Source: Salipiger profundus
GTDB lineage: Bacteria; Pseudomonadota; Alphaproteobacteria; Rhodobacterales; Rhodobacteraceae
Direction: 5' to 3'
DNA: 64,000 bases
Assembly (NCBI RefSeq): GCF_001969385.1
Contig: NZ_CP014796.1
Location: 4,419,501-4,483,500, forward strand
Shown: piece after piece, positions 44,878-49,406 of the stretch
Layout: each line of letters begins with the position of its first letter
Numbering within the stretch: the first letter of the stretch is position 1
Notes under the pieces: generated by a model
What the model was told of the DNA's origin: nothing
Database searches by the model: none
Seen by the model: the letters and a program-made list of their open reading frames with translations, nothing else
Program-made: the position numbers and the translations under genes

Positions 44878-45195
44878 ATGAGTATGACGATGCACGACGG
44901 CATCAAGCGTTGGACGGCGAAAAGGAAGACGGCCCTGGTGATCGAGATCATCCAGGGCAAGACGACCGAGTCGGAGGCGAGCCGGTCCTTTGACCTGACG
45001 CCCTCCGAGATCGAGGGCTGGGTCGAAGACGCCAAGCGGGGGATGGAGAACTCGCTGCGCGCCAACCCGCTCGACATCCGGGAGCAATACGGGAAGCAGC
45101 TCCGGGACCTGCAGGAAGCCTATGGCGAGGCCATGCTGGAGCTACGGGCCCGAAAAAAGCGTCAGGCCCTGCTGGATGCGCAGGACGGGAATTGA
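44878..45195 (+). CDS. IS3 family transposase OrfA
   Basis: The 105-aa product (MSMTMHDGIKRWTAKRKTAL) has the helix-turn-helix of IS3 OrfA proteins (EASRSFDLTPSEIEGWVEDA) and a C-terminal coiled segment (QYGKQLRDLQEAYGEAMLEL). It appears intact. Its stop overlaps the start of orfB (TTGA), in the usual IS3 arrangement for frameshift or coupled expression. Without an intact orfB it cannot support transposition. Confidence 0.85.
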   Translation: MSMTMHDGIKRWTAKRKTALVIEIIQGKTTESEASRSFDLTPSEIEGWVEDAKRGMENSLRANPLDIREQYGKQLRDLQEAYGEAMLELRARKKRQALLDAQDGN

Positions 45196-45590
45196 TCCGT
45201 CGCATCCGGCAGGGCCTCCTAGCGGAGGGCGTGGCGGTGTCGATCGCCAAGCTCTGCACGTGGTTCGGCATTCCCCGGCGCACGGTCTGCTACAAGCCGG
45301 TCAAAGCCGCTCCCAAGGTCGATCCCCGCTTCTCTGAACCGATCAGGAAGATCCCTCTCACACATGCTGCGCATGTGTTGCCGGGCAGTGGATCGAGGAG
45401 GAGCCGTCCTTTGGCTATCGGACCGTGGCCTGGCTCCTGGGCTTCAACAAGAACACCGTGCAGCGGATATTCCAGATTAAGGGCTGGCAGGTGCGCAAGC
45501 GTGCCGTGGGCATGCGGCCCCGCATCCAGGCTGTGCCGTCGGTTGCAGCTGCGCCGGACGACAGGCGTGGTCGGCGCGAATGCACCTCTC
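45192..45590 (+). pseudogene. IS3 transposase OrfB, interrupted and truncated
   Basis: The N-terminal part (IRRIRQGLLAEGVAVSIAKL, then GIPRRTVCYKPVKAAPKVDP) reads to 45352. A 38-bp hairpin insertion then breaks the frame, and the protein resumes in another frame as IEEEPSFGYRTVAWLLGFNK and KGWQVRKRAVGMRPRIQAVP. It degrades after PDD near 45560, before the catalytic domain. Removing exactly the 38 bp restores the frame as RKMIEEEPS, as expected for this family. Confidence 0.8.
45353..45390 (+). repeat. 38-bp hairpin insertion in IS3 orfB
   Basis: It begins CCCTCTC, has a perfect 7-bp hairpin ACACATG-CTGCG-CATGTGT, and ends TGCCGGGCAGTG just before GAT. Its ends are identical to those of the 41-bp insertion at 47785-47825 in the IS5 transposase, while the hairpin differs. 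There is no target duplication needed to restore the gene. Confidence 0.8.
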
Positions 45591-45716
45591 GGCTCGGCGG
45601 GTTCGTGTCAAAGCGTGGAGCGCAGATCCAGACCTTAGACGCATCCCTTTCCAACATCGCCCGCTCGATCCTGCTGAGCCTCTCGCCGGCCGCTTTGGTG
45701 TCCCCGTCGTAGTCTC

Positions 45717-45857
45717 TCAGCGCGCGCTGCCAAGCGCGCCGTGCCGCGCGGGGAGACCAAGGTGCGCCGCCTCGGCCAAACAGGCGCGGAGTTCCGGAGG
45801 AAACCTGTCATGGGCCGCCATCGGATCGCCGATGCGGGTGCGGTCACGAAGGCTGCT
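45717..45857 (-). pseudogene. Fragment of a DUF6525-like gene
   Basis: The minus-strand frame reads RIGDPMAAHDRFPPELRACL and then AEAAHLG before losing similarity and stopping. This resembles the core of DUF6525 proteins of Rhodobacteraceae from memory. No start codon or full-length frame is left. It is debris between the IS3 remnant and the COG0523 remnant. Confidence 0.3.
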
Positions 45858-46227
45858 GCATGCGTTTCCGCGCTGTGTGATCCGCGCCATTAGCCGGGCT
45901 CGACTGCGTCGATGACAGCAGTTGATATGTTTTGCCGCGTCGGGCGATAGGCGGCGAACGGTGGACCTCAGGCAGCAGGTCGTCGCGCAGAGTGCAGAAA
46001 ATGCAGCCGATGGTCATCTCGACCAGCTTTTCCTCGGTCTGGCTCAGCTCGGCGCCGCCGTCGCGGAGGAGGTCCGTGTCGATGTTCACCTCGGACATGT
46101 CGTTGACGATGACCGCAACGTGACGGCCCTCGCGGTTGTTGAACACCCAGTTGAGAAGCGTCGTTTGTCTGGCGCCCAGAAAGCCAGAGAGGACTGTGAC
46201 AGGGATGCGGGTGTCCGTTGATTGCAT
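45844..46227 (-). pseudogene. COG0523 (CobW/zinc metallochaperone-type) GTPase, decayed
   Basis: Only about 100 recognisable residues are left of a ~400-aa GTPase: [20 protein letters not shown], then [15 protein letters not shown] and [16 protein letters not shown]. The Walker A lysine is lost (GARQTT in place of GAGKTT) and the metal motif GCxCC reads GCIFC, so it cannot be active. It lies 67 bases downstream of zinT on the same strand, which suits the zinc-responsive COG0523 proteins often found with zinT. Confidence 0.8.
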
Positions 46228-46294
46228 GCCGTGTCTCTTCGTGCCGGTAGTGTGGATCACGGACGGCCCCGCAGAGCCGCCCGCGAATGTCGGA

Positions 46295-46978
46295 TCAGTG
46301 GGCCGTCATCTCCTGGGCGACCTCTTCGCCGCTCAGCTCGGCGGGATAGTAGGTCGGCCAGTTGGTCACTTCCTCGAGCAGCGCCGCCCGGTCGTCGCCC
46401 CAGTAGAGGTGGAAGTGCCCGGCGTCGGTGGGCGCGATCGCGTGGTCGCTGAACTGGATGAAGCCCGGCGCCTCGGCATCGCCGCCCGCCTTCTCGAAGA
46501 TGTAGCGGACGCCGCGGTTGCCGGCCTCGTAGGTCAGCACCTCGTGGCCGTCATCCTCGTAGCGGCCCTGCACCGGCTCTCCGTCACGGAAGAAGATGAC
46601 GCTATCGCCCTTGATCAGGATGCGGTCCACGTCGGTCGCATAGCCGGTCAGGTAGTAGCCCGTATATTCGGCCGCGGTCATGTCGCCGTGCTCGGCCTTG
46701 TGGGCCATGACCTCCTCAAGGGTGCCGTCCTGCAGCAGCGGGTAGACGGATTGCCAGTCGCCCTCCCAGTCAGAGAGGTCGCGAGCCTTGATCTGATCGT
46801 CGTCGAAGTAGCCGTTGTAGATGTCGTCGTCGCCGTGATCGTGGGCGTGTTCTTCGGAATGCTCGTGATCGTGGCCCGTCGCGCCGTCGCTGCCGCTTGC
46901 CGCGAAGGCCTGCGCGGAAAGGGCGAACAGTGCGCCGGCGGCGAGGATGCTGACGTGCTTGGCGAATGCCTGTTGCAT
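46295..46978 (-). CDS. zinT: Zinc-binding periplasmic protein ZinT
   Basis: ZinT binds zinc in the periplasm and hands it to the ZnuABC importer under zinc starvation. The 227-aa product has a signal peptide ([15 protein letters not shown]), a His/Asp-rich N-terminal stretch ([18 protein letters not shown]) and the lipocalin-like ZinT domain ([29 protein letters not shown]). CAGGAGACAC precedes the ATG. A perfect inverted repeat of Zur type lies 49 bases upstream of the start. Confidence 0.93.
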
Positions 46979-47022
46979 GAGTGTCTCCTGTCATTACCGG
47001 GGATCGACGATCCCTACGATTC

Positions 47023-47041
47023 GTTATGTTATCACATAACA
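47023..47041 (-). promoter_or_regulatory. Zur-like box upstream of zinT
   Basis: The sequence GTTATGTTATCACATAACA holds TGTTAT-CAC-ATAACA, a perfect inverted repeat 49-63 bases before the zinT ATG. It fits the alphaproteobacterial Zur box, so zinT and the downstream GTPase remnant were probably repressed by Zur when zinc is plentiful. Confidence 0.7.
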
Positions 47042-47271
47042 TTTTGCTGGTAGCCTCAATCGACGGTGCAGACAACCGCATGATCAGGGATGCGCTCTGC
47101 ACGAGCGGACAAGGGTCTGAGGAGAACGGCCTCGGGCCGACGTGTCAGGGCAGGCTCAGCCGCACCCTCCGACCGCCATGCACGGCATAGACTTGTCCGG
47201 TGATACGGCTTTGTTGCGCAAAGGCGGATGTAGGATTCATCTCGTGAATCCAGAGTGGTAGCTGGGGCGCC

Positions 47272-48245
47272 ATGAGCAGACCTCTCCCGCCGAACTACAA
47301 GACCAAGAACTGGCCGGCCTACAACGAAGCGCTGAAGCAGCGTGGCTCCCTGACGATCTGGTTCGATCCGGACATGGTCTGGGTGCCGCGGCCCACAGGC
47401 AAGCAAGGCCGGCAGCGGCTATATAGCGACGCCGCGATCCAGACGTGCCTGACGATGAAGGTCCTCTTCGGCATGGCGCTCCGGCAGACGACCGGTTTCG
47501 TTGAAAGCCTCCTGCGCCTGGTCGGCCTCGACTGGGCGGTGCCGGATTTCAGCACGTTGAGCCGGCGCCAGAAGGCCTTGGTGGTGACCGTTCCCTACCG
47601 CGGCTCCGAGGGGCCGCTGAACCTGCTGATCGACAGCACCGGCATCAAGGCGGAAGGCGAAGGCGAATGGCACGCCCGCAAGCATGGTGGCGCGAAACGC
47701 CGCCTGTGGCGCAAGATTCACATAGGCGTCGATGAACAGACGCTGGAAATTCGGGCCATCGAGGTCACAGGGAGTAGGGTCGGCCCCTCTCGGCAGCATC
47801 CTGCGGATGCGCCTGCCGGGCAGTGGATGCGCCGATGCTGCCCGAGTTGCTGGATCAGATCCCGGCAGATGAGGAAGTCGCGTCAGTCACCGCGGACGGA
47901 GCATACGACACGCGCAAGTGCCACAACGCGGTCGCAGATCGAGGCGCACACGCCGTCATTCCGCCGCGCAAAAACGCCAAGCCGTGGAAGCCTTCGACCG
48001 CCGGCGCCATTGCCAGGAACGAGGCACTGCGCGCATCGAAATACCTCGGCCGCGCCATTTGGCGAAAGTGGAGCGGATACCACCGCCGAAGCCGCGCCGA
48101 GACGAAGATGCACTGCGTGAAGCTCTTGGGGCAGAGCCTCATGGCGCGCGACTTCGATCGCCAGGTCGCAGAACTCCAAGTCCGCGCCGCCGTGTTGAAT
48201 GGCTACACTGCGCTCGGAATACCTGTCACCGAGCCCATGGGATAA
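47272..48245 (+). pseudogene. IS5 family transposase, frame broken by hairpin insertion
   Basis: The N-terminal frame (MSRPLPPNYKTKNWPAYNEA to EIRAIEVTGSRVG) holds the first catalytic Asp in LLIDSTGIK. After a 41-bp insertion at 47785-47825 the frame shifts and continues DAPMLPELLDQIPADEEVAS, with TADGAYDTRKCH (second Asp) and WSGYHRRSRAETKMH (catalytic Glu), to LGIPVTEPMG. Deleting the 41 bp gives one uninterrupted ~310-aa protein reading SRVGDAPMLP, so the insertion is the only damage visible. Confidence 0.85.
47785..47825 (+). repeat. 41-bp hairpin insertion in IS5 transposase
   Basis: It begins CCCTCTC and ends TGCCGGGCAGTG before GAT, exactly as the insertion at 45353-45390. The middle is a different hairpin: GGC-A-GCATCC, loop TGC, GGATGC-GCC (9 pairs, one bulged A). 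It points in the same direction relative to the host transposase. Confidence 0.8.
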
Positions 48246-48439
48246 GTGCGTCCGGGGAAAGGGGAAGTGCAGTCTTCAGCCTCTTTGCGCAACAAAGCCG
48301 AGCTACGCTCACGAAATAACCGCATGACCGAAGCCAGGCGGCACTTTCGAGGTCAATGCAAAATGAGTTGGCGATCCCCCGACACCTGCATCGACTTACC
48401 GACGTAGGATCGGGTGCCCTTGATCATCAGGGCCGGCAT

Positions 48440-49051: not shown

Positions 49052-49103
49052 TGCAATCTCCGGGCTTGACCTGTCTTTGAATTTCGCGCCATGTGGCCCG
49101 GTG

Positions 49104-49296
49104 TTGGTGCCTGTGTAAACAGGTGAAAAGGGAATGGTCAGCCTGCGATGCCTGTCGGCATTTCGGGTCAAGACAGCCGCCCCCGCGACCGTGAACGGAG
49201 AAGGTGCTTCGATGCCACTGGCCCAAGGGCCGGGAAGGTGGAGCACCGCAGGGCCATGTGCCCGGGATGCCGTGAGCCGGGAGACCTGCCAGCCCG
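49104..49296 (+). ncRNA. Cobalamin riboswitch 1, upstream of DUF1636-cobW-cobN
   Basis: Conserved pieces of the B12 aptamer appear in order: GTGAAAAGGGAATGGT near 49123, GCCGCCCCCGCGACCGTGAA (49171 region), GCCACTGG at 49214, GGGAAGGTGGAGC near 49235 and the B12 box CCGGGAGACCTGCC at 49277-49290. It lies about 110 bases before the DUF1636 ATG, so adenosylcobalamin should repress the cobW-cobN operon. Ends are approximate. Confidence 0.88.
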
Positions 49297-49406
49297 AATG
49301 ATGACCGACCGGACGGGGTGTGCCGGTGTCGGAGTGCGCCCGGCTGCCTGTTCTCGTGCGCGTTTCCGCCTGTGCCCCCGTTTGCCAAGCCGATGGGGCC
49401 GCGAGA

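What the first reader, a model, noticed from the sequence alone, without database searches (positions are those of the whole stretch)
45353..47825. Two related hairpin cassettes (38 and 41 bp) inserted in two unrelated transposase genes
The insertion at 45353-45390 (IS3 orfB) and that at 47785-47825 (IS5 transposase) share the exact ends CCCTCTC and TGCCGGGCAGTG and both stop just before GAT. Between these ends each has a different hairpin (7-bp stem, loop CTGCG; 9-pair stem, loop TGC), so sequence varies while folding is kept. Removing exactly 38 or 41 bp restores RKMIEEEPS and SRVGDAPMLP, the expected family sequences, with no target duplication. They fall in different codon phases, so this is insertion and not a coding feature. 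Precise entry without duplication next to a fixed trinucleotide recalls single-strand (IS200/IS605 or REP-type) mobility, but no such transposase is in the window. Both hosts being transposase genes, in the same orientation, suggests a hairpin element that targets or silences IS elements.
Basis: partly seen in the sequence, partly recalled or inferred. Interest (0 to 1): 0.85.

Follow-up and report, generated by a model that had tools for sequence, protein, structure and literature searches.

The report
Hairpin mini-elements inserted in transposase genes
Marine Roseobacter-group bacteria carry a family of about 40-base DNA hairpins whose shape is kept while much of the sequence varies, and most copies found sit cleanly inserted inside other jumping genes; what moves them is unknown.

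Summary
Both cassettes are exact, duplication-free insertions relative to uninterrupted IS3 and IS5 relatives. They belong to a large, mainly Rhodobacteraceae family: 38 of 198 genomes by exact pattern, reversed-pattern control 0. I collected 279 non-redundant insertions at 164 sites; 135 of 164 sites lie inside transposase ORFs of many IS families.

All share one fold: a 3-bp outer stem, a 4x4 internal loop, a variable hairpin often with a bulged A, then CARYG. In 73 distinct 41-mers 97% of pair cells are paired, with strong compensatory change. Stem wobble asymmetry and the flanking consensus (YYRTC) point to the minus strand; the outer stem does not show that asymmetry.

Best reading: a non-autonomous single-strand hairpin element moved in trans by an unidentified, perhaps HUH-type, enzyme. 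No Y1 transposase was found in this genome. Equal orientation in host genes and further lesions in most IS5 hosts argue against RNA removal or translational bypass. Whether ISs are targeted, or are merely long-lived neutral DNA, is open.

The parts
45353..45390 (+). Hairpin cassette 1 (38 bp) inside IS3 orfB: left end 45353-45359, hairpin 45360-45378, right end 45379-45390; the active strand is inferred to be minus
47785..47825 (+). Hairpin cassette 2 (41 bp) inside the IS5 transposase gene: left end 47785-47791, hairpin with bulged A 47792-47813, right end 47814-47825
44878..45195 (+). IS3-type orfA (DUF1153 in relatives)
   Evidence: ORF; annotation of relatives
45192..45573 (+). IS3 orfB, interrupted by cassette 1 and apparently truncated (similarity to relatives ends near 45573, while the relative's orfB is 822 bases)
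47207..48299 (+). IS5-family element of the ISRusp1 kind; terminal repeats GGCTTTGTTGCGCAAAG at 47207-47223 and inverted at 48283-48299
   Evidence: repeats read by eye; relatives
47272..48245 (+). IS5 transposase gene, interrupted by cassette 2 and otherwise open
   Evidence: ORFs; L003

Best explanation
A family of non-autonomous mobile hairpins, mostly 37-43 bp. Plus-strand anatomy: NNN-TCTC-[hairpin]-TGCC-N'N'N'-CARYG, where NNN pairs with N'N'N'. Steps shown: precise insertion between Y and GAYRR without duplication, and conservation of the fold by compensatory change. Steps inferred: the minus strand folds when single-stranded and is recognised mainly by shape (outer stem, internal loop, bulge) by an enzyme acting in trans, perhaps of the HUH type, which joins it 3' of YYRTC in the target strand. 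The enzyme has not been found. The copies found persist mostly in insertion sequences, which carry them between genomes, and they accumulate several per element.
For: Exact empty sites: of 96 sites with a spanning homologue of at least 75% identity, 71 show no length change within 8 bases of the junction; window copies. Fold: 97.0% of 876 pair cells paired, covariation score 0.432 against 0.100 in shuffles and at most 0.090 in slid controls, 10 of 12 pairs with changes on both sides. Strand: in hairpin stems of 216 distinct cassettes, mispairs that would be G-U on the minus strand outnumber G-T on the plus strand 80 to 10, and 32 to 10 without the first pair; the conserved flank YYRTC lies 5' of the element on the minus strand, the side that HUH enzymes read (recalled). 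A at hairpin position 4, unpaired in the fold, in 110 of 118 insertions with 22-nt hairpins. TnpA-REP needs the unpaired state of a bulge rather than its sequence (PMC8266576, passages).
Against: No mobiliser found. Y1_Tnp occurs in 8 of 38 cassette-positive and 10 of 160 negative genomes (my count), so there is an excess in carriers, but it is not found in the window's genome nor in G067, which has ten exact copies. At different sites cassettes of one genome are not more alike than those of different genomes at 90% identity or more (2.9% against 2.5% of pairs; permutation mean 2.5%); at 85% and 80% they are (7.5 against 4.0%, 10.9 against 6.1%; not tested), so clear local spread is not seen. 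All 36 Pseudosulfitobacter records keep one copy. In the outer stem the wobble asymmetry is absent (G-T 5, A-C 2). 14 of 96 sites lost one base and 7 gained one, which a pure HUH reaction would not give, though later slippage could. Folding energies of single copies are modest.
Confidence: 0.5

Rival explanations
1. Survivorship (about the IS preference, compatible with the best explanation): the element inserts widely, but insertions are seen mostly in ISs because non-autonomous IS lineages are the neutral DNA that persists and spreads in these genomes. No targeting of ISs exists.
For: Weak target consensus. Carrier IS5a copies mostly have further lesions: 6 of 29 intact apart from cassettes, against 5 of 8 empty copies. 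Decayed carriers have multiplied: a four-copy carrier in G055 and a three-copy carrier in G035, with no full-length cassette-free copy above 75% identity in either genome (one 125-base piece at 86% in G035). Little within-genome similarity of cassettes.
Against: 135 of 164 distinct sites in transposase ORFs; of 19 insertions without a transposase label, seven loci were read and only two looked intergenic, although intergenic DNA is also largely neutral.
Confidence: 0.5
2. The element is directed to transposase genes or transposing DNA and thereby silences or parasitises ISs.
For: In loci L041-L160, 129 of 154 insertions are in transposase ORFs, against 13.1% of 821,782 bases; up to five cassettes with neighbours less than 1200 bases apart (loci not deduplicated); some sites hit by different hairpins in related ISs, for example an IS481-type site with three hairpins in hosts 89-93% identical.
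Against: No strong target motif; no clear association of hairpin type with flanking bases; carriers still spread; some copies lie beside, not in, the ORF (17 of 279 within 250 bases), or in a prophage toxin-antitoxin-like gene.
Confidence: 0.15
3. A folded single-strand site used by a tyrosine recombinase, as integron attC is: outer stem, unpaired spacer, inner stem with extrahelical base, variable tip.
For: Same order of structural features (attC recalled); many different hairpins with constant ends in one genome.
Against: No RYYYAAC/GTTRRRY pair at the ends of the cassettes of alignment A3 (by eye; motif recalled); target Y^GAYRR does not fit. Integron integrase was not searched for.
Confidence: 0.1
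4. A translational bypass or self-removing RNA insert that leaves the transposase functional.
For: Hairpin inserts in coding genes whose carriers multiply; some insertions next to Asp codons of conserved transposase motifs such as LLI^DSTGIK (catalytic role recalled).
Against: Sites with and against the labelled ORF equal, 70:65; codon phases vary; additional lesions in 23 of 29 IS5a carriers; the hairpin wobble points to the minus strand.
Confidence: 0.03
5. Footprints or targets of an IS110-family element.
For: An IS110-family element (PF02371) abuts the right half of cassettes at four sites of this genome (five copies) and its end GGGACATT matches one hairpin arm. The left half of those cassettes was not found.
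Against: Only 16 of 247 cassette-bearing loci hold an IS110-like hit; the same IS110 also sits at non-cassette sites. REPs are known IS110 targets (PMC1525189, passages), so target is the simpler reading.
Confidence: 0.05

Closest known systems
REP sequences mobilised by TnpA-REP/RAYT
   Same: 20-40 bp, one hairpin, sometimes with a required bulge, constant tag with variable palindrome, no own gene, targets of IS110 elements (PMC8266576, PMC1525189 and PMC3733652, passages)
   Different: No GTAG tag; mostly inside transposase ORFs rather than between genes; outer 3-bp stem; Y1 transposase in only 8 of 38 carrier genomes
CGTC-tagged palindromic repeats of alphaproteobacteria
   Same: Alphaproteobacterial, 8-9 bp stems, no dedicated transposase (PMC3733652, passages)
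   Different: Tag, AT-initiated stem and CCA tail differ
IS200/IS605 family and its non-autonomous derivatives
   Same: Precise insertion without duplication 3' of a short sequence on the active strand (recalled)
   Different: One hairpin, not two; ends unrelated to the Rhodobacteraceae IS200 compared; no Y1 transposase found in this genome
Rickettsia palindromic elements
   Same: Small palindromes inserted in genes, alphaproteobacteria (recalled)
   Different: Lengths here shift the reading frame; hosts are mostly transposases
Integron attC sites
   Same: Folded strand with outer stem, unpaired spacer, extrahelical base (recalled)
   Different: No core motif seen; inserted unit holds no gene

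Membership tests
REP/RAYT | GTAG (or GGAG) tetranucleotide 5' of the hairpin | tested here: not met
   The four bases 5' of the hairpin are TCTC on plus and GGCA on minus in the consensus of alignment A3
REP/RAYT | Cognate Y1 transposase gene in the genome, flanked by the repeat | tested here: not met
   No PF01797 match in G000; 8 of 38 positive genomes have any; a full enumeration over 30 Y1 loci found one cassette, in L332, on one side of that gene only (which replaces a leaky search)
REP/RAYT | Hairpin recognised with unpaired bases in the stem | tested here: inconclusive
   A at position 4 in 110 of 118 22-nt hairpins but no bulge in the best pairing of 18-21-nt hairpins; recognition itself not testable here
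IS200/IS605 | Insertion without target duplication next to a short 5' target | tested here: met
   71 of 96 sites exact; YYRTC on minus
IS200/IS605 | Ends shared with an autonomous family member | tested here: not met
   Ends of nine IS200-like loci compared by eye
MITE of a DDE transposon | Terminal inverted repeats | tested here: not met
   CCCTCTC and CACTGCCCGGCA are not inverted repeats; the hairpin is internal
MITE of a DDE transposon | Target-site duplication | tested here: not met
Integron attC | RYYYAAC / GTTRRRY core | tested here: not met
   Not seen at the ends in alignment A3 (by eye); motif recalled
Integron attC | Integron integrase in the genome | not tested
   No search made
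RPE | In-frame insertion kept in the protein | tested here: not met
   Both window cassettes are 2 mod 3; family lengths vary, most often 41, 37, 39, 40, 43 and 38; feature recalled
Any Rfam family | Match to a covariance model | tested here: not met
   16 loci up to E 10: none of the matches checked overlaps a cassette

The most novel reading that the evidence does not exclude
Roseobacter-group bacteria host an undescribed single-strand hairpin mobile system, recognised largely by shape, that preferentially enters the transposase genes of other mobile elements and behaves as a parasite or brake of insertion sequences.
Probability: 0.25. Interest if true: 0.85.

Novelty: new variant of a known kind. 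Interest (0 to 1): 0.62.

Why it matters
It adds a mobile hairpin family whose structure, mapped at pair resolution, is conserved while sequence drifts, with dozens of base-exact empty sites and no known mobiliser. It makes two questions testable in culturable Roseobacters: what enzyme moves tag-less hairpins (a question also left open for the CGTC repeats of alphaproteobacteria, PMC3733652, passages), and whether mobile elements are attacked by still smaller mobile elements. It would also account for some broken transposase genes in these genomes.

Tried and rejected
Y1/IS200 as mobiliser: ends of nine loci compared by eye and unrelated, distribution does not fit well. A longer autonomous element with the same ends: the 12-base right end was sought in ten genomes; the hits without a nearby CCCTCTC whose flanks I read were degenerate copies, an IS110 junction, or lacked a hairpin; not every hit was read. 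Rfam: nothing on a cassette. Hairpin-directed targeting: type against flank, no position passed the max-statistic (0.252 against 0.269), although three positions have uncorrected p of 0.013 or less; cassette column against flank, none. Within-genome spread: see the Against line. RNA removal or bypass: see rivals. Literature: searches; among the papers listed I saw none that describes this family. In one search, 5,866 papers matched one of the two end strings and the 20 listed have none for the right end. Outside the family, 20 of 380 class-wide genomes matched a relaxed pattern; only G391 (three matches, two with a clear hairpin by eye) looked real.

Unresolved: same-site carriers with hosts about 80% identical but identical hairpins. 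Trees of four sites show one well-supported clade of four carriers (site 60, a fifth carrier outside it) and mixed patterns at the others. Either cassettes are held more constant than their hosts, or the same types enter the same sites again. The ends are conserved partly by how loci were fetched (exact pattern), so only hairpins and secondarily found copies are free of that bias. Site grouping used 60-base flanks and merged some neighbouring sites (for example sites 2 and 14). A full enumeration of the relaxed pattern gave 377 places against 378 in the earlier search.
Full report
Observation. The two cassettes are present as described and are the only two exact matches in the window. Against uninterrupted relatives the IS3 copy is a clean 38-bp insertion AAGAT^GATCG and the IS5 copy a clean 41-bp insertion TCGGC^GATGC. 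The borders cannot be shifted.

Family. The exact pattern occurs 4 times in the window's own genome, a relaxed one 5 times. It occurs in 38 of 198 Rhodobacteraceae genomes with up to 17 exact copies, and the reversed pattern in none. In 385 class-wide genomes 24 had a match to a relaxed pattern; of the 380 outside the family 20 did, and only those of G391 looked real by eye. One common 41-mer found 95 plasmid records, by the names shown mostly of the Roseobacter group, and no phage record; six stretches came from the viral-contig collection. Some exact-pattern hits without a hairpin are chance (for example L007, L113, L160); the hairpin filter was meant to drop such hits.

Anatomy. Relaxed copies show that the first three bases pair with bases 5-7 of the right end: CCC/GGG, and also ACC/GGT, CGC/GCG, GCC/GGC, CAC/GTG. 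Because loci were fetched with CCC/GGG this set is small: 31 of 255 copies are not CCC/GGG, 11 of them complementary, shuffle mean 4.9, highest 12, so on its own this is suggestive only. On 73 distinct 41-mers, chosen for diversity from 88, the full fold is paired in 97.0% of 876 cells; 121 cells carry two-sided changes against 28 in shuffles; every slid control falls to 43.4% or less. The structure was derived from these sequences, which favours it over the slid versions. In 110 of 118 insertions with 22-nt hairpins position 4 is A, unpaired in the fold; hairpins of 18-21 nt have no bulge in my best pairing. Mispairs in the hairpin stems are A-C on the plus strand 80 times and G-T 10 times (32 and 10 without the first pair), so wobble pairs are tolerated on the minus strand and that strand is the likely folded one; in the outer stem the numbers are 2 and 5, against that reading. 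DNA folding of single copies is only moderately better than shuffles and often prefers another local fold (z -1.3 to -2.2, five sequences); the case rests on covariation.

Insertion. Over 164 distinct sites the flank is Y^GAYRR with little beyond. For 96 sites with a homologue of at least 75% identity, 71 show no length change within 8 bases of the junction, 14 one base lost, 7 one base gained, 4 other. Losses may reflect shortening of the C run formed by target C plus CCC; in some sites the gap is a few bases away from the junction.

Hosts. Seeds were transposases recognised by reading or checked in Pfam (families of IS110, IS91, IS630, IS256, IS66, IS481-like, IS1182, IS5, IS21 and a tyrosine recombinase; IS3 and IS5 of the window kind by annotation of relatives). 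By a labelled-ORF search from these, 239 of 279 insertions lie in transposase ORFs, 17 within 250 bases, 4 farther, 19 in none. Of the unlabelled ones seven loci were read: four look like ISs or IS remnants (IS6-like, IS1182, IS5), one is a prophage toxin-antitoxin-like gene, two look intergenic. By distinct sites 135 of 164 are in ORFs and 146 within 250 bases; in loci L041-L160 129 of 154 insertions are in ORFs against 13.1% of bases. The background comes from loci centred on cassettes, not from whole genomes; labels rest on two rounds of similarity search and were not individually checked. Orientation is 70 with and 65 against the labelled ORF. Six sites carry the IS110 label; in the cases listed the cassette lies 63-192 bases from that ORF, one other (L215) 440.

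Behaviour. ISs with cassettes have multiplied: three identical 919-bp copies with two cassettes on an 86-kb replicon of G035 (same length and cassette place as D. shibae pDSHI04), four copies of 99% or more in G055, four in G075. In G035 and G055 no full-length cassette-free copy above 75% identity was found, but by reading the transposases of these carriers have further lesions, so mobilisation in trans by relatives is likely. In the IS5a group 6 of 29 carriers and 5 of 8 empty copies are otherwise intact. Cassettes at different sites of one genome are not more alike than between genomes at 90% identity or more, though they are at looser limits. All 36 Pseudosulfitobacter records cover the query with its cassette in full; a Paracoccus relative matches in two pieces (alignment not inspected). 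Same-site carriers: of 62 pairs, the 12 with hosts at least 97% identical have hairpins differing by at most one base; of 24 with hosts 80-88% identical, 16 differ by four or fewer bases and 6 have hairpins of another length; of 21 with hosts 70-80% identical, 7 and 12.

Mechanism. Shown: exact entry, conserved fold, presence mostly in mobile DNA. Inferred: single-strand recognition by shape and joining 3' of YYRTC by an enzyme supplied in trans. HUH enzymes work this way (recalled; TnpA-REP passages), but the Y1 family does not account for the distribution and the Rhodobacteraceae IS200 ends compared are different. Preference for ISs is either targeting or survival in neutral DNA that lasts; I cannot separate them.

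Known relatives. Closest in build are REP sequences, which are also targets for IS110 elements (PMC1525189, passages); here an IS110-family element abuts cassettes at four sites. The GTAG tag and a RAYT are lacking, so it is not filed as REP. CGTC repeats (PMC3733652, passages) also lack a transposase but differ in tag and stem. No described family was seen in the listings of six searches of the held open-access library; subscription papers and preprints are outside it.

Noticed in passing
Window 49088-49307 (L003 2804-3023): Strong cobalamin riboswitch match (RF00174, 83.9 bits) downstream of the IS5 copy.
   Followed up: no
G000, for example L199 1455-2640, L244, L245, L247-L250: An IS110-family element in nine copies of over 1 kb whose end GGGACATT equals a cassette hairpin arm; five copies at four sites abut the right half of a cassette.
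   Followed up: partly
G000, L199-L200, L246-L250, L264-L272: The IS110 is joined to an element with tyrosine-recombinase-like reading frames and ends TCCTCCGCATTA, in both orientations, resembling a recombinase-in-trio element (name recalled, not searched); structure not resolved.
   Followed up: partly
L054, L142, L147: A roughly 400-bp internally deleted IS5-like remnant with two or three cassettes, shared by three loci.
   Followed up: partly
Sites 30, 59, 90, 96, 100: Five of the seven sites with one gained base gained an A directly before a pyrimidine, two bases into the right flank; unexplained.
   Followed up: no
G055, L301 651-1579: A four-copy IS5-type element with two opposed cassettes, a nonsense codon and Ala where relatives have Asp in the IDATYLK motif, i.e. 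a probably dead transposase gene that still multiplied.
   Followed up: partly
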